Of a stretch of 47,865 nucleotides of DNA, positions 742 to 26,230 are shown piece after piece. The notes under the pieces are model-generated. The model did not search any database. It was not told the DNA's origin and saw only the letters and a program-made list of their open reading frames with translations. Source of the stretch: Clostridia bacterium. GTDB lineage: Bacteria; Bacillota; Clostridia; Christensenellales; Aristaeellaceae. The position numbers were made by a program, and so were the translations under genes. Numbering within the stretch: position 1 is the stretch's first letter; every line of letters begins with the position of its first letter. The stretch spans positions 1 to 47,865 of the forward strand of contig JAFXJP010000037.1 in NCBI GenBank assembly GCA_017532155.1. Reading direction: 5' to 3'.

Positions 742-770
742 TTGACAAACCATTCATGCATAAGTATACT
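742..770 (+). promoter_or_regulatory. Near-consensus sigma-A promoter for the small 776-948 transcript
   Basis: A perfect -35 TTGACA (742-747) is separated by exactly 17 bp from TATACT (765-770, five of six matches). The flanks are AT-rich. It points at a short interval containing only a small ORF and a terminator, and is one of the best promoter matches in the window. Confidence 0.85.
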
Positions 771-807
771 ATAAGCATCATCAGAAAACACTTTGGAGGG
801 ACACGCT

Positions 808-885
808 GTGAAAGGGAAATTGCACGTGAAAGAGCGACGATGCCGTGAGCGACGATCTGCGCCCCTGAACACGCTCAGCGCCTGA
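808..885 (+). CDS. Candidate 25-residue arginine-rich peptide
   Basis: A GTG start at 808 follows GGAGG (795-799) with eight bases between, good Bacillota spacing, and the frame closes at TGA 883-885. The peptide has three lysines and five arginines among 25 residues, with a repeated E-R-R pattern from the duplicated GAGCGACGAT, one cysteine, and no transmembrane stretch. I do not recognise it. The Shine-Dalgarno can pair perfectly with bases just after the stop codon, so a ribosome reaching the stop would open the structure around its own initiation site; this self-coupling is inference. Alternatively the ORF is accidental and the RNA is the product. Confidence 0.45.
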   Translation: MKGKLHVKERRCRERRSAPLNTLSA

Positions 886-920
886 CCTCCAAATGATGAA
901 TTTATTTTTTGCATTTTTAA

Positions 921-948
921 AGGCTGTCGTTTGACAGCCTCTTTTTTT
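921..948 (+). terminator. Intrinsic terminator of the small transcript
   Basis: An eight-base-pair perfect stem (AGGCTGTC 921-928, GACAGCCT 933-940) with a four-base loop is followed by seven T residues. It also overlaps the 3' end of the convergent acetyltransferase gene and may work weakly in the other direction. Confidence 0.92.
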
Positions 949-1423
949 ATTCATACAGCATGCGCAGCTCTGTGCCAATGCGGATTTCCGCCTGCGTTCC
1001 GTCCAGCCTAAAGCCGTAGCGCTCGTAAAAACGCAGCGCCCGGGCATTGCCCTTGAGCACCCACAGCGCCACCTGGTCATAGCCGCGCAGCTGCTCCATT
1101 GCCGCGTTCATCAGCCGGTAGCCCACGCGCTTGCCGTAATAATCGCGCAGAATATATATGGCATAGATTTCCCCGGCGTTCTGCAGCGAATCATCGCGAT
1201 ACGCCCCGTAGCAGGCAAAACCGACCACGCGGTCGCCATCCTTGGCTACCAGCGTATTCTGCGGGTACTGATGCGCCTTTTGGATGCAGTTTTCCAGGCT
1301 GCGCGCGTCCAGATGCTGCTGGTCAATCAGCCCCGTGTAGGCTTCCATCCAGGCCTGATAATGCACATAGCCCTTGCCGTCCATGTCGGCAGACGACTGC
1401 ATAGGAACAATTTGAATATCCAT
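947..1423 (-). CDS. GNAT-family N-acetyltransferase
   Basis: A 158-residue protein with the GCN5-related acetyltransferase fold, expected to move an acetyl group from acetyl-CoA to an unknown amine. The acetyl-CoA loop is visible as YYGKRVGYRLM (about residues 93-103), followed by the late motif LKGNARALRFYERYGF, typical of the family. The ATG start is immediately next to the stop codon of the upstream gene (TAA then ATG on the minus strand), so translation is probably coupled in a two-gene operon. Substrate cannot be deduced. Family assignment is secure, function is not. Confidence 0.88.
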   Translation of the reverse strand: MDIQIVPMQSSADMDGKGYVHYQAWMEAYTGLIDQQHLDARSLENCIQKAHQYPQNTLVAKDGDRVVGFACYGAYRDDSLQNAGEIYAIYILRDYYGKRVGYRLMNAAMEQLRGYDQVALWVLKGNARALRFYERYGFRLDGTQAEIRIGTELRMLYE

Positions 1424-2326
1424 TTACTCCACCGGCTTAATCCAGGTGTACCACTGGCTGCCGTCCGTTTCGGTGCAGATAGTGCCCGTCGAAATATAAT
1501 AGCGCGGGATGTTGCGGCCGTCCAGCTGTTTGTCGTGCGTAGCGGTGGAGGATTTGGTGTTGGTCACAATCACCAGCCCGGGATCCATCGCCGTCAGGAA
1601 ATCCGGCACCGCCGCCGTGCGGCCATGATGCGCGGCCTTGTAAATATCGCACTTGAACAGAGCAGGATCAAAGTTTTCCAGCAGCCAGTGCTGCGTTTCG
1701 CCGCCGATATCCGCCGTCAGCAGCACGCGCGCATCGCCATACTGCAAGAGCGCCGTGACAGAATGATTGTTCATCGTCTGCTTTTTGTTGTCCCAGCGAT
1801 AGAAAGTCAGCGTCGCGCCGCCAAATTCCATCACGTCGCCGGTCTTGACCGTTTCAAAGGGAATGCCTTTTTCCTTAAGCAGACGCTTATAGGGATTCCA
1901 TAGCGTATAACTGTCTTCCTCGGTATAGGGCGAAATGACCTTGCCCACCGAATAACCGCGCTTGATCAGCTCCTCCTGCATTTCCAGATGGTCATCATGC
2001 GCATGCGTTAAGAACATCACGTCAAATCCGTCAATATCATTGGCTTCCATATAGTCAATGACCGTGTTTACGCGCCAGCCTTCGCCGCCGTCAATCAGCA
2101 TGGTCATACCGCCCACGCGCACCACAATGCAGTCTCCCTGGCGAATGCCCACGTAATCCACACGCATGGTCTGCGCGTCATCGGCAAAAGGCGGCTCAGC
2201 CAGCTCCTCTACCTTTTCATAAGGCGCAGAAAGCTTGGTCGGCGCGTGATAAATGGGTAGCGCATCTGCCGCCGCCAGAGGAAGAATAAAGCTGATTACC
2301 AGCAAAATAAGCCAAAATTTCTTCAT
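1424..2326 (-). CDS. Secreted metallo-beta-lactamase-fold hydrolase, ComEC C-terminal type
   Basis: A 300-residue protein. Residues 1-22 form a Sec signal peptide (MKKFW, hydrophobic core, LAAADA end). The mature part has the metallo-beta-lactamase-fold metal motif HAHDDH at 108-113, an upstream LIDGGEG loop at about 77-83, a later TADIGG aspartate region and AAHHG near residue 230. This pattern matches the hydrolase domain at the C-terminus of ComEC and free-standing extracellular relatives, which may act on nucleic acids. It lacks the ComEC membrane channel, so a DNA-uptake role is only a possibility. Start is preceded by GAGGTA; it is the first gene of an operon with the acetyltransferase. 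Confidence 0.85.
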   Translation of the reverse strand: MKKFWLILLVISFILPLAAADALPIYHAPTKLSAPYEKVEELAEPPFADDAQTMRVDYVGIRQGDCIVVRVGGMTMLIDGGEGWRVNTVIDYMEANDIDGFDVMFLTHAHDDHLEMQEELIKRGYSVGKVISPYTEEDSYTLWNPYKRLLKEKGIPFETVKTGDVMEFGGATLTFYRWDNKKQTMNNHSVTALLQYGDARVLLTADIGGETQHWLLENFDPALFKCDIYKAAHHGRTAAVPDFLTAMDPGLVIVTNTKSSTATHDKQLDGRNIPRYYISTGTICTETDGSQWYTWIKPVE

Positions 2327-2351
2327 GTGTACCTCCTATCGGTTCGATGAT

Positions 2352-2380
2352 AGTATAACATAAAGATAGATATTGCGCAA
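2352..2380 (-). promoter_or_regulatory. Probable promoter for the hydrolase-acetyltransferase operon
   Basis: On the minus strand TATACT (2352-2357) lies 17 bp downstream of TTGCGC (2375-2380). The -10 is good, the -35 matches consensus only in TTG. It lies between the ribosomal operon terminator and the hydrolase start. Confidence 0.5.
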
Positions 2381-2403
2381 TGTTACAGATATGTTACGCA
2401 ACA

Positions 2404-2419
2404 GTTTTACATGTAAAAC
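2404..2419. promoter_or_regulatory. 16-bp perfect palindrome, possible operator
   Basis: GTTTTACATGTAAAAC reads the same on both strands. It sits just upstream of the hydrolase promoter and just past the rplQ terminator, where a dimeric repressor or activator could bind. It does not match a Bacillota operator that I can name. Confidence 0.4.
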
Positions 2420-2423
2420 AACA

Positions 2424-2456
2424 AAAACGCCTGACAGACAATCTGTCAGGCGTTTT
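2424..2456 (-). terminator. Terminator of the ribosomal supercluster
   Basis: A 15-bp perfect stem (2424-2438 with 2442-2456) with a three-base loop lies ten bases past the rplQ stop codon. The stem begins with AAAA and ends with TTTT, the usual form of a strong, potentially bidirectional intrinsic terminator. Confidence 0.9.
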
Positions 2457-2466
2457 ATTGCAGTGA

Positions 2467-2979
2467 TTACACCAGCTCGATGATAACCATCTCAGCGGCG
2501 TCGCCACGGCGCGGTCCCAGCTTATACATGCGGGTATAGCCGCCGGCGCAGCCCTTCTCTTCGTTGCGGGCACGATACTTGGGGCCCAGCTCACGGAAGA
2601 GCTTTTCAACCACAGGATGCTTGTTATCCTTGGTGCGCTCCTTGTACTCGCTCTTGGATTCTTCAGCAGTCTTCTGCTCCTTGAGGTCGTACAGGTAGCT
2701 CATCATGATACGACGGGCAGCCAGCTTTTCAGCGCTGTCGTTGGTGACAGTCACTTCCACGATCTGGCCCTTGTCGTTGTGGAAGGACTTCTGCACTTCC
2801 ACAGTCTTGTCATACTCGCGGATGGCGAGGGTGATCATCTTTTCCGCGACGCTGCGGACTTCCTTGGCGCGGGCCAGGGTCGTCTCGATGCGGCCGTACC
2901 AGATCAGATTGGTGACCTGGTTGCGCAGCAGCGCCTTGCGCTGATCGGCCGTGCGGCCCAGCTTACGTTGCGTTGCCAT
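2467..2979 (-). CDS. rplQ: Large-subunit ribosomal protein L17 (bL17), enlarged form
   Basis: Protein of the large ribosomal subunit near the exit tunnel. Family blocks are clear: [20 protein letters not shown] at the start, [22 protein letters not shown], then [20 protein letters not shown] at the end. At 170 residues it is about 50 longer than the usual 115-125. The extra residues form two charged insertions, around residues 56-80 and 102-122, between conserved blocks. There is no frame disruption, so the gene is intact. Last gene of the supercluster, 38 bp after rpoA and just before the terminator. Confidence 0.97.
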
Positions 2980-3017: not shown

Positions 3018-3965
3018 TTAATCGTCGGACGGGCGCAGGCCAAGGCCCAGCGCCTCAAGCTTCTGTTCCACTTCCTCGAGGCTCTTCTTGCCCAGGTTGC
3101 GTACCTTCATCATGTCTTCCTGATTGCGCTGCACAAGCTCAGCCACGGTATTGATACCGGCGCGCTTGAGGCAGTTATACGCACGAACGGACAGGTCAAG
3201 TTCCTCGATGGTCATTTCGAGAACTTTTTCCTTCTTATCATCCTCACGCTCAGAGTGAGGCACGGGCATCGTCTGATCGGTCAGACCCACGAACAGCTCC
3301 AGCTGGTCCTTGAGGATCTTGGCGGCCATGGCGATGGCTTCATCCGGCAGCACAGAGCCGTTGGTCCACACGTCAAGCATCAGCTTGTCGTAGTCGGTGA
3401 CCTGGCCCACGCGGGTGTCGGATACCGTGTAGTTCACCTTGCGGATGGGGGTGTAGATGGAATCCACCGGGATGACGCCGATCGGCATCTGCGGTGTTTT
3501 ATTCTTATCGGCAGAGACGTAGCCGCGGCCGATATCAATGGTAAATGTAATGTGCAGCTTCGCGCCTTCACCCAGGGTGGCGATGTGCAGGTCGGGGTTG
3601 ATTACCTCTACCTCATCATCCACGCGGATGTCAGCCGCGGTCACCTCGCAGGGACCTTCGGCGATGAGCTCCAGCGTCTTGGGCTGATCGGCGAACATGC
3701 GGACGGAGAGCATCTTGAAGTTCAGGATGATCTCGCTCACATCTTCCTTCACGCCAGGAACGGTGGAAAACTCATGCTGTACGCCGTCAATCCGGATGGA
3801 AGTAACTGCAGCGCCGGGGAGACTGTTGAGCAGTACGCGGCGAAGCGCGTTACCCAGCGTGTGACCGAAACCGCGTTCAAGCGGCTCGATGGCGAAGCGG
3901 CCATAGGTGTTGTTGTCGGCAACTTCCAGACACTCGATGTGCGCTTTTTCGATTTCTGCGATCAC
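3018..3965 (-). CDS. rpoA: DNA-directed RNA polymerase subunit alpha
   Basis: 315 residues, normal length. The N-terminal domain that assembles the polymerase core is recognised by [20 protein letters not shown] (about residues 32-51) and later by [20 protein letters not shown]. An acidic and lysine-rich linker near 240-250 joins the C-terminal domain, which contains [16 protein letters not shown] and [12 protein letters not shown], the helix-hairpin-helix surface for UP elements and activators. Located between rpsD and rplQ as in other Bacillota. Confidence 0.98.
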
Positions 3966-4026
3966 GGCGTTCTTCCCTCCTATTATTGGAAACCGTCGTT
4001 ATGTTAACTTTCAGGCGGTGCGTCCT

Positions 4027-4656
4027 TTAACGGGAGTAGAACTCGACGATCATGTTCTCCTGCAGCGTGAAGTCAATATCCTCACGAGCGGGCAGCGCCA
4101 CTACGGTAGCAGTCAGTTCGTCGGCATTGAAGGTCAGCCACTTGGGCAGGATGCGGGCGGCATTGCCTTCGCGCACAGCCTTGAAGTGGGGCATGTCCTT
4201 GCTCTTGGCGCGGATGGAGATCACGTCGTTCACATCAACGGTGTAGGAGGAAACGTCCACCTTCTTGCCGTTAACGAGCACGTGGCCATGCAGCACCAGC
4301 TGACGGGCCTGGGGACGGGAAGCGCCCAGACCAGAGCGGTAAACAACATTGTCCAGGCGGCGCTCCAGCAGGCTCAGCAGGTTTTCACCGGTGACGCCCT
4401 TCATGGAGGTAGCACGCTCATAAGTCTTGTGGAACTGGGATTCGAGCAGACCGTAAGCGCGGCGAGCCTTCTGCTTTTCACGCAGCTGCATGCCATATTC
4501 GCTTACTTTACGCTGACGGGCCTGACCATGCTGGCCAGGAGGGGTCGGACGCTTGCTCAGCGCGCACTTGTCAGAGTAGCACTTTTCGCCCTTCAGGAAG
4601 AGCTTGGTACCCTCACGGCGGCACAGACGGCAAACGGAACCAGTATATCTTGCCAT
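4027..4656 (-). CDS. rpsD: Small-subunit ribosomal protein S4 (uS4), zinc form
   Basis: 209 residues. S4 nucleates assembly of the 5' domain of 16S rRNA. Cysteines at 9, 12, 26 and 31 form the four-cysteine zinc site of the C+ type of S4. The S4 RNA-binding domain is seen as [20 protein letters not shown]. It follows rpsK by 15 bp. In many Bacillota rpsD is elsewhere with its own leader; here it is inside the alpha cluster, and no S4-type leader was noticed. Confidence 0.98.
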
Positions 4657-4671
4657 ATTAGCCTCCTAAAA

Positions 4672-5079
4672 TTACACTCTTCTACGCTTGGGCGGACGGC
4701 AACCGTTGTGCGGGATGGGCGTCACGTCCTTGATCATGGTGACTTCAAGACCGGCAGCCTGCAGAGAGCGGATAGCCGCCTCACGGCCCGAACCGGGACC
4801 CTTGACGTACACTTCAACCGACTTGAGGCCGAACTCAGTGGAGGCCTTCGCAGCGGTTTCGGCGGCCATCTGAGCAGCAAAAGGCGTGCTCTTCTTGTTG
4901 CCGCGGAAGCCCATGCCGCCGGCGGAAGCCCAGGACAGGGCGTTGCCGTTGGTGTCGGTGATGGTCACGATGGTGTTGTTAAAGGAAGAGCTGATATGCG
5001 CAACGCCGCGCTCAACGAGCTTCTTTTCACGGCGCTTGCGGGAAATCTTCTTCACCTTGGATTGAGATTTGGGTGCCAT
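4672..5079 (-). CDS. rpsK: Small-subunit ribosomal protein S11 (uS11)
   Basis: 135 residues, platform protein of the small subunit near the mRNA exit site. A lysine and arginine-rich N-terminal tail is followed by [33 protein letters not shown] and the terminal [12 protein letters not shown], all diagnostic. Between rpsM (47 bp) and rpsD (15 bp). Confidence 0.98.
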
Positions 5080-5126
5080 TATTATCCCTCCGCGCTCCTT
5101 CTATTGGAGCTTACTTCTCTTTCAGC

Positions 5127-5504
5127 TTACTTGGTAGCCTTCTTCTTGCCAGCAACCTGCTTCTTGGGGCCCTTACGGGTGCGCGCATTCTGCTTGGTGT
5201 TCTGGCCGCGGACAGGCAGGCTGCGACGATGGCGTACGCCACGGTAGCTGCCGATCTCGATGAGGCGCTTGATATTGAGCGAAACTTCACGGCGCAGGTC
5301 GCCCTCCACCTTCAGGTGATGCTCGATATACTCGCGCAGCTTGCTGATTTCGTTCTCGGAGAGATCCTTAACGCGGGTGTCAGGATTGATGCCAGTCTCA
5401 GCAATGATCTGCTTGGACGTGGTCAGGCCGATGCCGTAAATGTACGTCAGGCCAATCTCGACGCGCTTCTCTCTGGGCAGGTCAACGCCCGCAATACGTG
5501 CCAT
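5127..5504 (-). CDS. rpsM: Small-subunit ribosomal protein S13 (uS13)
   Basis: 125 residues, head of the small subunit, contacting tRNA and the B1 bridges. The start is the ATG at 5504, giving [26 protein letters not shown] lies about eleven bases upstream. The frame stays open farther upstream, but that extension has no family similarity and is rejected. Other blocks: [26 protein letters not shown] and a lysine-rich tail. It is preceded by a 250-bp untranslated interval, the longest inside the supercluster. Confidence 0.97.
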
Positions 5505-19111: not shown

Positions 19112-19140
19112 TTAACAATTGAATTTACCTGCGCTATAAT
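19112..19140 (+). promoter_or_regulatory. Promoter of the MATE array
   Basis: TTAACA (19112-19117) and a perfect TATAAT (19135-19140) are separated by 17 bp, 34 bp before the first MATE start codon. No terminator-like leader lies between. Confidence 0.8.
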
Positions 19141-19174
19141 AAATGCATCCTGTTATATAATGAAGGAGTCTGTC

Positions 19175-20554
19175 ATGTTCTTTTCGCGTTCAAGCCATAA
19201 AGTACCCATGACCGAAGGGCCGCTGCTGAAAAACACGTTCATATTCTCCCTTCCGCTGATGTTCTCCGGCTGGCTCCAGCTTTTATTCAACGCTGCCGAC
19301 ACCATTGTTGTCGGCCGTTTTTCCGGTCAGCAGGCGCTGGCGGCTGTCGGATCGACCGGCTCGCTCAACCAATTGCTGATCTGCCTGTTCCTGGGGCTGG
19401 GCACAGGCGCCAACGTCATCGTCGCGCGCGCCATCGGCGCAAAGGACCACGCCCGCGCCTCCGCCGGCGCGCATACGGCCGTGACCACCGCCCTGCTGTC
19501 AGGGTTGATTCTGGCAGTGCTTGGCAATGTGCTTTCGCGGCCGCTGCTGCAGCTGATGGACTCCCCCGCGGATGTAATTGATCTTTCTACTACTTATATG
19601 CGCATCATTTTCCTGGGCATGCCCATGCAGCTGCTGTACAACTTCTGCGCGGCGCTTTTGCGCTCGGTAGGCGATACCAAGCGCCCGCTGTATTTTCTCT
19701 CCGTCGCAGGCGTTGCCAATGTGCTGCTCAACCTGCTGTTTGTGATCGTTCTTAAAATGAGCGTGGCAGGCGTCGCGCTGGCCACCATTATTTCGCACAC
19801 CATTTCAGCGCTGCTTGCGCTGCGTTCGCTGACGCACCGGGATGACATGCTGAAAATCGAGCTGAAAAAGCTGCGGATCGATCCCAGCATCTTTCTGGAG
19901 ATCGCGCGCATCGGCCTGCCCACGGGCGTGCAGAGCGCCATGTTCTCCATCGCCAACGTGCTTATCCAATCCACGCGCAATTCCTTCGGCTCCACCGTCA
20001 TGGCGGGCTGCGCTGCCGCAGCCAACGTGGGCGGCTTTATCAGCCAGGGCCTTAACGCCTTCGCCATGGCCTGCACCTCCTTTGTCAGCCAGAACTACGG
20101 CGCAAAAAAGCCGCAGCGCATTCTGCGCGCCATGTGGGTGTGTCAGCTGTGGAGCTTTTTGATTTCCGGTACGCTGGGTGTGCTGGGCTTTATTTTCGGC
20201 AAACAACTGCTGAGCCTGTATAACACCGACCCCGAAGTCATCTACTGGGGCTTCCAGCAGTTCTGCCTAGCCAATGTCCCCATCGCGCTGATGGGCTTCC
20301 AGTCCATTTTCTCCGGCGCGCTGCGCGGCATCGGCTATTCGCTGCTGCCCATGTGCATCTCGCTGGTCGGCATCTGCCTGTTCCGCGTGGTATGGGTCAT
20401 GACAGTATTCAAAAGCAATCCCACGCTGATTTGCCTGAACATTTCCTACCCTGTCTCCTGGGTGCTGACCGGCGCCGTCATGGGCATCACTTTCTTCTAT
20501 TTCTTTAAGCGCGTCAGAACAAAGCTGCTTGCCGATACTTCTGCCGCTATATAA
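19175..20554 (+). CDS. MATE-family efflux transporter, array member 1
   Basis: 459 residues, about twelve membrane segments in two six-helix halves. MATE proteins export cationic or other small molecules in exchange for Na+ or H+. The start is ATG 19175, six bases after AAGGAG; the ATG at 19160 would overlap that ribosome site. Conserved blocks: MTEGPLLKNT at the N-terminus, LFNAADTIVVGRFSG in TM1-2, VGDTKRPLYFLS between TM5 and TM6, SQNYGAKKPQRILRAMWVCQ in the second half. Substrate unknown. First of five consecutive paralogues, 13 bp before the next. Confidence 0.93.
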   Translation: MFFSRSSHKVPMTEGPLLKNTFIFSLPLMFSGWLQLLFNAADTIVVGRFSGQQALAAVGSTGSLNQLLICLFLGLGTGANVIVARAIGAKDHARASAGAHTAVTTALLSGLILAVLGNVLSRPLLQLMDSPADVIDLSTTYMRIIFLGMPMQLLYNFCAALLRSVGDTKRPLYFLSVAGVANVLLNLLFVIVLKMSVAGVALATIISHTISALLALRSLTHRDDMLKIELKKLRIDPSIFLEIARIGLPTGVQSAMFSIANVLIQSTRNSFGSTVMAGCAAAANVGGFISQGLNAFAMACTSFVSQNYGAKKPQRILRAMWVCQLWSFLISGTLGVLGFIFGKQLLSLYNTDPEVIYWGFQQFCLANVPIALMGFQSIFSGALRGIGYSLLPMCISLVGICLFRVVWVMTVFKSNPTLICLNISYPVSWVLTGAVMGITFFYFFKRVRTKLLADTSAAI

Positions 20555-20567
20555 AAGGGAGAAAACC

Positions 20568-21947
20568 ATGTTTAAATCCCACGCACACCGCAATATTGTT
20601 ATGACCGAAGGGTCGTTGTGGCGCAGCACGCTTTTATTTGCCCTGCCGATTTTCCTGTCAGGGCTTTTACAATTATTCTTCAACGCGGCCGACACCATCG
20701 TCGTCGGCCGTTTTGCAGGCCAGGAAGCGCTGGCAGCCGTGGGTTCGGTGGGCTCGCTCAACGCGCTGCTGGTCAATATTTTTCTGGGGCTGAGCATCGG
20801 CGCCAATGTCATCGTTGCGCGCTCTATCGGCGCGGGCGACCATCAAAAAGTGCAGGACGCCGTGCATACCTCGGTCACGGTGTCTGTTATCTGCGGCATA
20901 CTGCTGGCGTTCATCGGCTTTTTTGCCGCGCGCCCGCTGCTTTTGCTGATGGGCACGCCGGAAGACGTAATCGACCTGGCGGCGCTGTACGTGCGCATTA
21001 TTTTCCTGGGTATGCCCATTCAGATGCTGTATAATTTCTCCGCCTCCATCCTGCGCGCAGTGGGCGATACCAAGCGCCCGCTGTATTTTCTCACGTCCGC
21101 CGGCATTGTCAACGTGCTGCTGAACCTGGTATTTGTCATCGCTTTCAAAATGAGCGTGGCAGGCGTGGCGCTGGCGACGGTCCTTTCGCATTTTGTATCG
21201 ACAGGGCTCGTGGTGCATTCGCTGCTGACGCGCACAGACGCAGTGCGCGTTGATCCGCGCAAGCTGCGCATCAACCGCCGTCTTCTGTGGCAGATCATGC
21301 GTATCGGCCTGCCCAGCGGCGTGCAAAGCTCGATGTTTTCCCTTTCCAACATCCTCATTCAATCCTCAATCAACTCCTTCGGCACCATCGCCATGGCGGG
21401 CAGTGCCGCAGCGGGCAATCTGTGCTCGTTTATTTATCAGGCGGTCGCCGCCTTCCAGAGCACTGCCACCACCTTTACCGGACAAAATGTCGGCGCGCGC
21501 AAGCCGCGCCGCGTGCTCAAAACGCAGTATGTGTGCCAGCTGTGGTGCATCATTGTAACGGGCGTGATGGGCGTGGGCAATCTTATTTTCGGCGAGCAGC
21601 TGCTGTCTCTTTACAATACCGATCCCGAGGTCATCCGCTGGGGCATGGAGCGCATCGTCGTGGCCAACGCACCGTACTTCCTGATGGGCATGCAGTCGGT
21701 CTTCTCCGGCGGCCTGCGCGGCATGGGCTATTCGCTGCTGCCCATGTGCATTTCGCTGTGCGGTATCTGCCTCACGCGCGTGGTATGGCTGGCCACCGTT
21801 TTCCGCGCCCACCCCACCATGAGCTGCCTGATGCTCTCGCACCCTGTTTCCTGGGTATTTACGCTGATTTTCATGAGCGCCTTCTTCTTTATCTTCTACA
21901 ACCGTTTGAAAAAGGACCACTCCGTGCAGGAGCTGGCCGCGGAATAA
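20568..21947 (+). CDS. MATE-family efflux transporter, array member 2
   Basis: 459 residues. Start ATG 20568 follows AAGGGAG; it gives MFKSHAHRNIVMTEGSL, aligned with the N-termini of members 3 and 4. Blocks match member 1 position for position (FFNAADTIVVGRFAGQEALA, VGDTKRPLYFLTSAG, GQNVGARKPRRVLKTQYVCQ). Closest by eye to member 3. No terminator separates it from its neighbours, so co-transcription from 19112 is likely. Twelve-helix inner-membrane antiporter by family; substrate unknown. Confidence 0.93.
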   Translation: MFKSHAHRNIVMTEGSLWRSTLLFALPIFLSGLLQLFFNAADTIVVGRFAGQEALAAVGSVGSLNALLVNIFLGLSIGANVIVARSIGAGDHQKVQDAVHTSVTVSVICGILLAFIGFFAARPLLLLMGTPEDVIDLAALYVRIIFLGMPIQMLYNFSASILRAVGDTKRPLYFLTSAGIVNVLLNLVFVIAFKMSVAGVALATVLSHFVSTGLVVHSLLTRTDAVRVDPRKLRINRRLLWQIMRIGLPSGVQSSMFSLSNILIQSSINSFGTIAMAGSAAAGNLCSFIYQAVAAFQSTATTFTGQNVGARKPRRVLKTQYVCQLWCIIVTGVMGVGNLIFGEQLLSLYNTDPEVIRWGMERIVVANAPYFLMGMQSVFSGGLRGMGYSLLPMCISLCGICLTRVVWLATVFRAHPTMSCLMLSHPVSWVFTLIFMSAFFFIFYNRLKKDHSVQELAAE

Positions 21948-21968
21948 GCACACAAGCAGGAGAAAATC

Positions 21969-23348
21969 ATGTTCAGATCACACGCACACCGCAATATCGT
22001 TATGACCGAAGGGTCTTTGTTCAAAAACACGCTTTTGTTTGCGCTGCCGCTGTTTTTATCAGGTCTGTTGCAATTGTTCTTTAACGCCGCCGACACCATC
22101 GTCGTTGGCCGTTTTTCCGGTCAGGAGGCGCTGGCAGCCGTGGGCTCGGTGGGCTCGCTCAACTCGCTGCTGGTCAATATTTTCCTGGGGCTGTCGACGG
22201 GCACCAACGTAGTCGTGGCGCGCTATATCGGCGCGCAGGATTTGAAAAACGCCCGCGCGGCCGTGCATACCGCCGTAACAGTTTCCGTGATCGGCGGCGC
22301 TTTGCTGGCCGTCGTCGGCTTTGTGCTGGCGCGTCCCCTCCTGCAGCTGATGGGCTCACCCGAGGACGTCATCGATCTGGCAGTGCTCTACATCCGCATT
22401 ATTTTTATCGGCATGCCCGTGCAGATGCTCTATAATTTCTCCGCCGCCGTGCTGCGCTCAGTGGGTGATACCAAGCGCCCGCTTTATTTCCTGACCACAG
22501 CGGGTGTAATCAACGTCATTCTCAATCTCATTTTCGTCATTTGTTTCCATATGAGCGTAGCGGGCGTGGCGCTGGCGACGATCATCTCCCAGGCCGTTTC
22601 CGCCGTGCTGGTGGTCAGATCGCTGATGCTGCGCGACGACCAGGTGCACCTGGATCCGCATATGCTGCGCATCGACAAAAAGATCCTGCTTGAAATCACG
22701 CGCATCGGCCTGCCCAGCGGCATTCAGGGCTCGATGTTCTCCATCTCCAACGTGCTCATTCAGTCCTCCGTCAATTCCTTTGGCACCATCGCTATGGCGG
22801 GCAACGCCGCCGCCGGCAACCTGTGCTCCTTTGTGCACCAGGGCGTACAATCGATCGCCCAGACCGTAACAGCCTTCGTCGGCCAGAATATGGGTGCACG
22901 CAAGCCCCGCCGCATTATACGCGTAATGTGGGTGTGCCAGGTGTGGAATCTCGTATTTACGGGCTTGCTGGGCGTGGGCAGCTATATCTTTGGCGAAACG
23001 CTGCTTTCACTGTACAATACCAATCCCGAAGTCATAAGCCTGGGCATGGAGCGCCTGCTGGTGGTGAACGTGCCGTATTTCCTGCTGGGCATTTACGATG
23101 TATTTTCCGGCACGCTGCGCGGCATCGGCTATTCGCTGCTGCCGATGGCCATCGCCCTGGCCGGCATCTGTCTGCTGCGTATCGTCTGGCTGGCCACGTT
23201 CTTTAAGACAATGCCCACCATGACGGGTTTGATGCTCTCCTATCCCGTTTCCTGGCTGGTAACAGCCATCGTCATGGGCGGAGCTCTGTTCATCCTCTTT
23301 CAGCACGTCAAAAAACAATTCTCCCCGCAGGAACTCTCCGCGCAGTAA
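21969..23348 (+). CDS. MATE-family efflux transporter, array member 3
   Basis: 459 residues, starting MFRSHAHRNIVMTEGSLFKN after CAGGAGA. The first 120 residues differ little from member 2, and the segment encoded at 22569-22615 is nearly identical at DNA level to 24041-24087 in member 4, a sign of recent duplication or gene conversion. Same twelve-helix topology and loop motifs (VGDTKRPLYFLTTAG, GQNMGARKPRRIIRVMWVCQ). 92 bp separate it from member 4. Confidence 0.93.
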   Translation: MFRSHAHRNIVMTEGSLFKNTLLFALPLFLSGLLQLFFNAADTIVVGRFSGQEALAAVGSVGSLNSLLVNIFLGLSTGTNVVVARYIGAQDLKNARAAVHTAVTVSVIGGALLAVVGFVLARPLLQLMGSPEDVIDLAVLYIRIIFIGMPVQMLYNFSAAVLRSVGDTKRPLYFLTTAGVINVILNLIFVICFHMSVAGVALATIISQAVSAVLVVRSLMLRDDQVHLDPHMLRIDKKILLEITRIGLPSGIQGSMFSISNVLIQSSVNSFGTIAMAGNAAAGNLCSFVHQGVQSIAQTVTAFVGQNMGARKPRRIIRVMWVCQVWNLVFTGLLGVGSYIFGETLLSLYNTNPEVISLGMERLLVVNVPYFLLGIYDVFSGTLRGIGYSLLPMAIALAGICLLRIVWLATFFKTMPTMTGLMLSYPVSWLVTAIVMGGALFILFQHVKKQFSPQELSAQ

Positions 23349-23390
23349 AAAAGATTGCCCCGGGCTCTGTTCATTTCCAGCAATATACAG

Positions 23391-23396
23391 TATAAT
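23391..23396 (+). promoter_or_regulatory. Possible secondary promoter (-10) before array member 4
   Basis: A perfect TATAAT in the only sizeable gap of the array (23349-23440). No good -35 lies at 16-18 bp (TGTTCA at 17 bp), so activity is uncertain. Confidence 0.35.
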
Positions 23397-23440
23397 CACT
23401 GTAACGCCACACATTACGCTATGAATCAAGGAGAAACATC

Positions 23441-24820
23441 ATGTTTAGATCTCGCGCGCCTCACTCCATTGACATGACCGAAGGCTCTTTGCTCAAAAAC
23501 GTACTGTTCTTTGCGCTGCCACTGATGTTTTCAGGCATCCTGCAGCTGCTCTTCAACGCCGCCGATACCATCGTCGTGGGCCGTTATGCCGGCGAACAGG
23601 CGCTGGCCGCGGTCGGCTCCACCGGCTCGCTGAACAACCTGATTGTCAGCCTTTTTATCGGCCTCTCAACCGGCTCCAATGTTGTTGTAGCCCGGCAAAT
23701 GGGCGCTCGCAATTACAAAGGCGTGCAGGACGCTGTGCATACGTCCGTCACCGTTTCGATCATCAGCGGCATTTTCCTGGCCTTCCTGGGCTGTTTTCTG
23801 GCGCGTCCGATGCTGACGATGATGGGCTCGCCCGATGATGTAATTGACCTGTCTGTGCTGTATATGCGCATTATTTTCCTTGGCATGCCCGTGCAGATGG
23901 TGTATAACTTCTGCGCTGCCATTCTGCGCTCGGTAGGCGATACCAAGCGCCCGCTGTATTTCCTGACCGTGGCGGGCGTAATCAACGTGGCGCTCAACCT
24001 GCTGTTTGTCATTGGCTTTGGCATGACGGTGGACGGCGTTGCGCTGGCGACGATCATCTCCCAGGCCGTTTCCGCTGTGCTGGTGGTGCGCTCGCTGATG
24101 CTGCGCGAAGACGCCGTACGCCTGAATCTCAGACGTCTGCGCATCGTGCCCTCCATGCTGGCTAAAATCGTCAAGATCGGTCTCCCCAGCGGCGTTCAGG
24201 GTTCTGTTTTTGCCATCTCCAATGTGCTGATTCAGTCCTCCGTCAACTCCTTTGGCACCATCGTCATGGCAGGCAACGCCGCAGCTGCCAACATCGGCGG
24301 CTTTGTATATCAGGGCATCAGCGCTTTTGTACAGGCGGTCACCTCCTTTGTCGGCCAGAATTTCGGCGCCCGCAAGCCCCGCCGCGCCCTGCATTCCATG
24401 TGGGTTTGCCATATGTGGAGCTTTGTTTTCACCTTCTCCCTGGGTCTGTTTACCGTCATTTTCAGCGAGCAGCTGCTCAGCCTGTATAACACCGATCCCA
24501 ATGTGATTGCCCTGGGTATGAAGCGCTCCCTTTATTTGCACATTCCTTATTTCCTTTGCGCCTTCATGGAAATCTTCTCCGGCGCACTGCGCGGCATCGG
24601 CTACTCGCTTTTGCCCATGGCCATATCGCTCCTTGGCGCCTGCGCCTTCCGCATTGTGTGGATTTACACCATCTTCCAGAAGGTGCATACCATGGATTGC
24701 CTGTACCTCTCTTATCCTGTTTCGTGGTTCATCACCGCCGTCGTCATGGGGTATTTCTTCTTCCTGCTGTACAAGCGCGTATGCAAAGATTTCACCCCCG
24801 AGGAGCTCAGCGCCCGCTGA
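23441..24820 (+). CDS. MATE-family efflux transporter, array member 4
   Basis: 459 residues, starting MFRSRAPHSIDMTEGSLLKN after AAGGAGA. Conserved blocks: LFNAADTIVVGRYAGEQALA, VGDTKRPLYFLTVAG, GQNFGARKPRRALHSMWVCH. It is the only array member that ends in TGA. A candidate -10 lies 45 bp upstream, so members 4 and 5 might also be expressed separately. Substrate unknown. Confidence 0.93.
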   Translation: MFRSRAPHSIDMTEGSLLKNVLFFALPLMFSGILQLLFNAADTIVVGRYAGEQALAAVGSTGSLNNLIVSLFIGLSTGSNVVVARQMGARNYKGVQDAVHTSVTVSIISGIFLAFLGCFLARPMLTMMGSPDDVIDLSVLYMRIIFLGMPVQMVYNFCAAILRSVGDTKRPLYFLTVAGVINVALNLLFVIGFGMTVDGVALATIISQAVSAVLVVRSLMLREDAVRLNLRRLRIVPSMLAKIVKIGLPSGVQGSVFAISNVLIQSSVNSFGTIVMAGNAAAANIGGFVYQGISAFVQAVTSFVGQNFGARKPRRALHSMWVCHMWSFVFTFSLGLFTVIFSEQLLSLYNTDPNVIALGMKRSLYLHIPYFLCAFMEIFSGALRGIGYSLLPMAISLLGACAFRIVWIYTIFQKVHTMDCLYLSYPVSWFITAVVMGYFFFLLYKRVCKDFTPEELSAR

Positions 24821-24835
24821 CGCAAGGAGGGTATC

Positions 24836-26230
24836 ATGCGGCTGAAATTATTCCATAATCGCGTTCATCAGCGCCATCTGGACATCACCACCGGCCCGAT
24901 GGGCAAGAATGTGATGCGCTTTGCGCTGCCAGTATTCTTCTCAGGTATTTTGCAGCTGCTGTTCAATGCAGCGGATTCCATCGTCGTCGGCCAGTATTCT
25001 GGCAGTCAGGCGCTGGCAGCAGTCAGCTCCACCGGCACGATTACCGGTCTTTTAGTCTGTCTGTTCCTGGGGCTTTCCTCCGGCGCCAGCATCCTGGTTT
25101 CGCGCTTTACAGGCGCGCGGGAGTATAAGTCCGTACAGGAAACCGTGCACACCTCGGTATTGGTTGCAGTGCTCAGCGGCGTTTTTCTGGCTGTTCTGGG
25201 CTGGTTCCTGGCGCGCCCCATGCTGCATTTGATGGACACGCCCGACGATGTGATTGATCTTTCTACGCTGTATCTGAAGATCATTTTCCTGGGCATGCCG
25301 CTGCAGATGATTTACAACTTCTGCGCGTCCGTTCTGCGTGCGGTGGGCGATACCAAGCGCCCGCTGTACTTCCTGACGACAGCCGGCGTGGTGAATGTTA
25401 TCCTCAACCTTATTTTCGTCATCGCATTTAAAATGAGCGTAGCGGGCGTGGCGCTGGCAACGGTCATTTCTCAGGCAGTATCCGCTGCACTGGTGGTGCA
25501 CTCGCTCATGCTGCGTGAGGACGCAACGCGCCTTTTCTACCACAAGCTGCGCATCCATCCGCACATCATGATGAAGCTTTTGCATCTGGGGTTGCCGGCC
25601 GGCATTCAGAGCGCCACGTTCTCGCTCTCAGGCATGCTCATTCAGTCCTCTATCAATTCCTTCGGCTCTGTCGCCATGGCGGGCATCGGCGCCGCGACAA
25701 GCATCGGCGGCTTCATCAACAATTCGCTGGACGCCTTCTCCCAGGCCAACACCTGCTTTGTCAGCCAGAATTATGGCGCGCGCAAGCCCCGCCGCATTCT
25801 GCGCGCGGTATATACCTGTCTTGGCCTTGGCAGCATTTTCGTTGTTATCTTCAGTGCGATAACCATCATTTTCGGCCGGCCGCTGCTTTCGCTGTATGTG
25901 AATGATCCCGCTGCCATTGAATGGGGCATGATCCGCATCATTTATCTGCATGTCCCCTACTTCCTCGGCTGCGTGCAGAGCATTTTCCTGGGTGCATTGC
26001 GCGGCATGGGCTACTCCATTTTGTCCATGTGCATTTCGCTCATCGGCATTTGCGGCATTCGCATCATCTGGCTGTACACAGCCTTCGTCGTTTGGCCGAC
26101 CATGGAATGTCTGATCATCTCCTACGGCGCATCGTGGCTGTTTACCGGGCCTGTAGCGGCGATTTTCTTCTTCCTGCTGTACAAACGGCTGTGCAAGGAA
26201 TATACGGCAGAGGAACTGGCCGAGCGGTAA
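24836..26230 (+). CDS. MATE-family efflux transporter, array member 5
   Basis: 464 residues, start ATG 24836 after AAGGAGG, 15 bp past member 4. The most divergent array member: N-terminus MRLKLFHNRVHQRHLDITTG instead of the MTEG form, yet the core loops remain (LFNAADSIVVGQYSGSQALA, VGDTKRPLYFLTTAG, SQNYGARKPRRILRAVYTCL). It is followed by a large inverted pair of repeat elements that probably terminates the transcript. Confidence 0.93.
   Translation: MRLKLFHNRVHQRHLDITTGPMGKNVMRFALPVFFSGILQLLFNAADSIVVGQYSGSQALAAVSSTGTITGLLVCLFLGLSSGASILVSRFTGAREYKSVQETVHTSVLVAVLSGVFLAVLGWFLARPMLHLMDTPDDVIDLSTLYLKIIFLGMPLQMIYNFCASVLRAVGDTKRPLYFLTTAGVVNVILNLIFVIAFKMSVAGVALATVISQAVSAALVVHSLMLREDATRLFYHKLRIHPHIMMKLLHLGLPAGIQSATFSLSGMLIQSSINSFGSVAMAGIGAATSIGGFINNSLDAFSQANTCFVSQNYGARKPRRILRAVYTCLGLGSIFVVIFSAITIIFGRPLLSLYVNDPAAIEWGMIRIIYLHVPYFLGCVQSIFLGALRGMGYSILSMCISLIGICGIRIIWLYTAFVVWPTMECLIISYGASWLFTGPVAAIFFFLLYKRLCKEYTAEELAER

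What the first reader, a model, noticed from the sequence alone, without database searches (positions are those of the whole stretch)
776..948. Stand-alone small transcript after metK with the ribosome site locked to the stop-codon region of its own 25-codon ORF
TTGACA-17-TATACT drives only about 170 nt before a perfect intrinsic terminator. Within it 792-799 pairs perfectly with 886-893 and 804-808 with 876-880, so the Shine-Dalgarno of the ORF at 808-885 is paired with bases immediately after its stop codon. The ORF contains a duplicated 10-mer (GAGCGACGAT, 15 bp apart). It is either an unrecognised structured RNA or a peptide gene with feedback through its own structure, or both.
Basis: partly seen in the sequence, partly recalled or inferred. 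Interest (0 to 1): 0.72.

Follow-up and report, generated by a model that had tools for sequence, protein, structure and literature searches.

The report
Orphan structured small bacterial transcript
Just after a bacterial metK gene there is what looks like a short RNA with its own start and stop signals and paired ends, but no relative of it turned up in the related genomes searched and its tiny reading frame does not look like a gene, so it is most likely an ordinary lineage-restricted small RNA.

Summary
The described anatomy is real. A strong promoter (TTGACA-17-TATACT, 742-770) and terminator (921-948) frame about 170 nt. Helices 778-783/894-899, 792-799/886-893 and 804-808/876-880 clamp the ends and cover most of the Shine-Dalgarno (SD) of a 25-codon ORF (808-885). 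It is the window's only promoter (10 of 12 or better) with a terminator within 400 nt. Its SD is the most tightly locked of 45 GGAGG-plus-start sites there, narrowly (11.8 against 11.2 kcal/mol). Other features alone are only mildly unusual: folding z -1.6; a long-range 8-bp helix in 18 and a 10-mer repeat in 20 of 278 window tiles.

Flanking gene order is not conserved: in the closest congener neither metK nor the metallo-hydrolase gene is followed by it. Codon use of the ORF looks non-coding. Best reading: a lineage-restricted structured small RNA, ORF probably incidental. A self-locking micro-peptide mRNA is not excluded.

The parts
742..770 (+). sigma-70 type promoter TTGACA-17-TATACT; expected start of transcription about 777 (inferred)
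   Evidence: 11 of 12 consensus matches; one of two such sites in the window
778..783 (+). 5' arm of outer closing helix (pairs with 894-899)
   Evidence: pair probability 0.84 and 0.95 at the two pairs printed
792..799 (+). 5' arm of main closing helix; contains five of the six bases of the Shine-Dalgarno-like GGAGGG 795-800
804..808 (+). 5' arm of third helix (pairs with 876-880), reaching the GTG
808..885 (+). 25-codon GTG ORF, basic peptide; probably not a gene
   Evidence: synonymous-codon score at the 6th percentile of gene segments, average for off-frame sequence; no convincing homologue
832..841 (+). GAGCGACGAT, copy 1
   Evidence: sequence; control
847..856 (+). GAGCGACGAT, copy 2
   Evidence: sequence; control
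876..880 (+). 3' arm of third helix
886..893 (+). 3' arm of main helix, CCTCCAAA, anti-SD-like, directly after the TGA
894..899 (+). 3' arm of outer helix
921..948 (+). intrinsic terminator (8-pair stem 921-940 and T-rich tail)

Best explanation
A lineage-restricted (orphan), independently transcribed small structured RNA of about 170 nt: its own promoter, a rod-like fold whose 5' and 3' parts are clamped by three stacked helices, an A/U-rich linker and its own terminator. Shown: the sequence signals and the predicted fold. Inferred: that it is transcribed, and that it acts as RNA. The most likely mode of action is that of trans-acting small RNAs, through the loosely paired apical region (about 827-858, with the two GAGCGACGAU copies), the end clamp serving folding and stability. 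In this reading the SD/GTG ORF is incidental: the GGAGG is simply the G-rich side of a strong stem. It sits at a gene junction not seen in the relatives examined.
For: Only tight promoter-to-terminator unit in the window. Separate from metK, which has its own terminator-like hairpin at 672-698. High pair probability for the closing helices. 5 of 500 shuffles and 34 of 1566 real tiles reach its number of long-range pairs. ORF codon use is non-coding-like. No convincing homologue in the family or the sampled order, and flanking gene order is not conserved. In E. coli the trans-acting small RNAs were the latest RNA families to appear, and lineage-specific accumulation is described (PMC4114697, section read), so absence from relatives does not by itself speak against it.
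Against: No expression data. No comparative support of any kind. Its folding stability is ordinary for the window, also after GC matching. The apical region has no firm single structure, and no target was sought. The narrow ranges described in PMC4114697 are at the level of an order or genus, whereas this one was not found even in the 10 held congeners, a narrower range that also fits a functionless remnant.
Confidence: 0.55

Rival explanations
1. A small mRNA for a basic 25-residue peptide that locks itself: the SD is usable while the transcript is being made and is shut once the bases after the stop codon emerge, as in end-to-end locked toxin mRNAs.
For: Opening the SD costs 2.0-3.1 kcal/mol for transcripts ending at 830-885, 7.0 at 890 and 11.4-11.8 from 895 on. 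It is the highest-cost site of 45 GGAGG-plus-start sites in the window. Good SD and 7-nt spacing.
Against: The margin over the next sites is small (11.8 against 11.2, 10.6 and 10.5 kcal/mol). Even in the shorter transcripts the start codon is mostly paired (mean unpaired 0.03-0.41). Codon use is not that of a gene, with 4 of 5 Arg codons CGA, the rarest of the six in the window's long ORFs. No convincing peptide homologue. The peptide is hydrophilic, unlike membrane toxins (recalled). No consensus promoter on the opposite strand in 500-1500.
Confidence: 0.15
2. A decayed or chance remnant: a promoter and terminator left at a rearrangement junction between metK and the GNAT/metallo-hydrolase genes, with chance base pairing and no function.
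For: No convincing homologue in what was searched. In the closest congener G007, metK and the metallo-hydrolase gene lie on different contigs and neither is followed by it. Several of the single features are not rare in the window.
Against: An 11-of-12 promoter with 17-nt spacing, a strong terminator and three collinear helices between them are all intact.
Confidence: 0.25
3. A diverged member of a known RNA family, for example a second 6S RNA.
For: Paired ends and autonomous unit.
Against: No Rfam family at the gathering score in the window; the 15 matches at E up to 10 in 660-1000 are all far below their gathering scores. The genome has a 6S candidate elsewhere (G000 C50, 41.1 bits, below the 46.4 cut-off). 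The closed domain is about 122 nt, against 187 model positions.
Confidence: 0.03

Closest known systems
Lineage-specific bacterial trans-acting small RNAs (class; PMC4114697)
   Same: Own promoter and intrinsic terminator, intergenic, 100-200 nt (class traits recalled), narrow phylogenetic range
   Different: No expression, target or conservation evidence here; range narrower than the order or genus level of that paper
Type I toxin mRNAs with a 5'-3' long-distance lock (hok, aapA; PMC6733600, passages)
   Same: SD predicted to pair with an anti-SD far downstream near the 3' end, so the finished transcript would be closed
   Different: No antisense consensus promoter found, peptide basic and hydrophilic, ORF without coding signal, 3' processing unknown
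6S RNA (Rfam RF00013)
   Same: Ends paired, stand-alone
   Different: No match to the model; shorter; the genome has another 6S candidate

Membership tests
Bacterial small RNA (as a class) | Own promoter and rho-independent terminator in an intergenic region | tested here: met
   by consensus scans only:
Bacterial small RNA (as a class) | Is transcribed as a discrete RNA | not testable with these tools
   no expression data
Bacterial small RNA (as a class) | Structure kept by compensating changes among relatives | tested here: inconclusive
   no homologue to compare
6S RNA (RF00013) | Match to the family model | tested here: not met
   the genome's candidate lies elsewhere
Type I toxin mRNA | SD occluded by anti-SD in the full transcript | tested here: met
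   by prediction only
Type I toxin mRNA | Antisense RNA gene on the opposite strand | tested here: inconclusive
   no minus-strand consensus promoter in 500-1500; other promoter types are not covered by that scan
Type I toxin mRNA | Small hydrophobic membrane peptide (recalled) | tested here: not met
   by reading the translation: 8 Lys/Arg, 2 Glu in 25 residues, no hydrophobic stretch
Protein-coding gene | Codon use of the organism's genes | tested here: inconclusive
   6.4% of gene pieces score as low and 53% of off-frame pieces as high; points to non-coding but 25 codons give little power
Protein-coding gene | Homologous reading frame in relatives | tested here: not met
   best non-self E 0.06 per genome over 308 genomes

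The most novel reading that the evidence does not exclude
A self-limiting micro-mRNA: an orphan basic peptide made only from nascent transcripts, because synthesis of the bases just past the stop codon snaps the ribosome site shut, with no antisense partner needed.
Probability: 0.1. Interest if true: 0.55.

Novelty: new member of a known kind. Interest (0 to 1): 0.22.

Why it matters
If transcribed, it is one more small RNA in an unnamed lineage, and a clean example of an RNA present in one genome and not found in its sampled relatives. If the locked-peptide reading were true, it would be a minimal self-timed translation switch. As it stands it is a modest annotation.

Tried and rejected
6S or other Rfam family: rejected. 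Matches at permissive thresholds (for example two to the L20 leader, 14.9 and 17.9 bits against a gathering score of 58.7) look terminator-driven.

Homologues after metK: in 9 relatives whose metK 3' flank I read by eye (680-900 nt each; all 8 congeners with a MetK match at E up to 1e-60, plus G024) I saw none. MetK was found in 47 of 60 genomes, own included; the other flanks were not read.

Neighbour genes as anchors: the GNAT was found in 2 of 11 genus genomes, own included. The metallo-hydrolase was found in 11 of 11 at E up to 1e-20, but only 9 (own included) have the close ortholog (E below 1e-100); I read its 3' flank only in G007.

Multi-copy mobile element (MITE-like inverted ends): single copy in the genome.

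Covariance model R1, built from one sequence: own genome only itself; 40 relatives, own included, only itself; 308 family genomes gave itself and three hits (E 0.003-0.07 per genome). These three lie across open frames of 660, 1035 and 686 codons and break several pairs, as expected by chance over 308 searches. In one search my script did not list frames running off the ends; one search mended that.

BLAST hits at E up to 1 in 88 of 100 relatives, own included: the listed non-self hits have best E 0.0012 and are at most 43 nt long; the list was cut. The two extra order hits (33 and 35 nt) lie in open frames of 185 codons and 498 codons. For the first of them looked at the wrong stretch; one search is the right one.

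Peptide (30-residue form) in 308 family genomes: 85 match at E up to 1, own included; best non-self E 0.06 per genome, over short parts of the query, taken as chance. One of these, in G112, overlaps one of the three covariance-model hits, as the same weak similarity would give.

Phage and plasmid DNA matches (8 and 1 records) cover only the A/T-rich upstream part, about 707-750.

Pattern scans: the 19-mer in genome contigs gave 2 hits, in Pseudomonas and Paenibacillus, taken as chance and not followed. The stem pattern in viral contigs gave 114 stretches, 80 of them listed; none was inspected. The repeat pattern gave 2; I read both translations by eye and saw nothing like the peptide as an intact frame.

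Full report
What is there. A near-consensus promoter follows at 742-770, then about 170 nt, then a terminator at 921-948, which overlaps the stop codon of a convergent GNAT acetyltransferase gene (947-1423, minus strand; Pfam match). The coordinates and pairings in the finding are right. A third outer helix, 778-783/894-899, adds to the clamp.

How unusual. Promoter strength and its pairing with a close terminator are unusual in this window: 1 of 2 sites with 11 of 12 matches, and the only promoter-terminator unit of 40-400 nt among sites with 10 or more matches. The clamp is moderately unusual: 5 of 500 shuffles reach its 21 long-range pairs, and 34 of 1566 window tiles (19 of 969 GC-matched) do. 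Stability is not unusual (z -1.6; 1085 of 1566 tiles, and 602 of 969 GC-matched tiles, are at least as stable). The SD opening cost, 11.8 kcal/mol, is the highest of 45 GGAGG-plus-start sites in the window, the next being 11.2, 10.6 and 10.5 (the one site at or above it is the finding itself; the 45 sites were taken wherever they lie, in genes or not). A repeated 10-mer occurs in 20 of 278 tiles and in 46 of 2000 shuffles. The site was picked by eye from 47.9 kb, so these figures overstate its rarity.

Is the ORF a gene? The synonymous-codon score per codon is -0.12, against a mean of 0.17 (sd 0.17) for 25-codon pieces of long ORFs (6.4% as low) and -0.11 for off-frame pieces (53% as high). 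A second score, codon log-odds, gives 5.3% and 38.5%. The training set was 38 mechanically chosen long ORFs, of which a few (such as 3907-5247 on the plus strand, opposite ribosomal-protein genes named by eye) are probably spurious, which blurs the contrast. No Pfam or PHROG match, no tblastn match in plasmids or phages, and in 308 family genomes a best non-self E of 0.06 per genome, which is chance over so many genomes. With 25 codons the test is weak, so the peptide is disfavoured, not excluded.

Relatives. By BLAST, 1 of 308 family genomes (itself) at E up to 0.001, and 3 of 396 order genomes (itself and two pieces of 33 and 35 nt inside open frames). By covariance model, 1 of 40 relatives (itself) at E up to 1, and 4 of 308 at E up to 0.1, the other three across long open frames. 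The order sample overlaps the family set. The model rests on one sequence, and the search of 308 genomes used stricter filters, so a homologue with a changed sequence could be missed. The genomes are partly incomplete (the own one 82.5%), and one genome per species is held, so strains of the same species could not be compared. The own genome holds a single copy.

Setting. In the congener with the closest MetK (G007, 94% identity) metK is followed by a different gene. The metallo-hydrolase ortholog (82%) lies on another contig, two ORFs away from the rplQ-like gene and followed by a kinase-like ORF (gene names by eye). The GNAT gene is found in only 1 of 10 congeners (G004, 49% identity). So the interval between the metallo-hydrolase gene and metK looks like a junction particular to this lineage among the relatives examined.

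Mechanism. Most likely a lineage-restricted structured small RNA. The end clamp would protect and fold it, and the loosely paired apical part with the repeated decamer would be the natural contact surface; this last step is inference only, and no target search was made. The alternative, a self-locking peptide mRNA, has a folding basis: SD opening costs 2.0-3.1 kcal/mol for transcripts ending at 830-885, 7.0 at 890 and 11.4-11.8 from 895 on. Against it, the start codon is mostly paired also in the shorter transcripts. End-to-end locks of this type are described for toxin mRNAs (PMC6733600, passages seen), but the peptide is not hydrophobic and no antisense promoter was found by a simple scan. 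A functionless remnant remains a serious rival.

Literature. Four searches were answered; one was rejected for its wording. PMC4114697: outline with abstract and one section. PMC6733600: search listing and passages. No search was made for this exact RNA in print.

Noticed in passing
G000 contig C50:3879-4070 (outside the window): 6S RNA candidate at 41.1 bits, under the Rfam cut-off of 46.4. In the same search (stricter filters) 9 of 10 congeners show no 6S match at E up to 10, while 19 of 25 other genomes of the family do.
   Followed up: no
window 19160-26230, + strand: Five consecutive mechanical ORFs of nearly equal length (464, 472, 459, 459, 464 aa) behind a TTAACA-17-TATAAT promoter-like site at 19112; possibly a tandem gene family.
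   Followed up: no
window 947-2979 compared with L219: Gene order between the rplQ-like gene and metK differs between the window and its closest congener, suggesting a rearrangement junction.
   Followed up: partly
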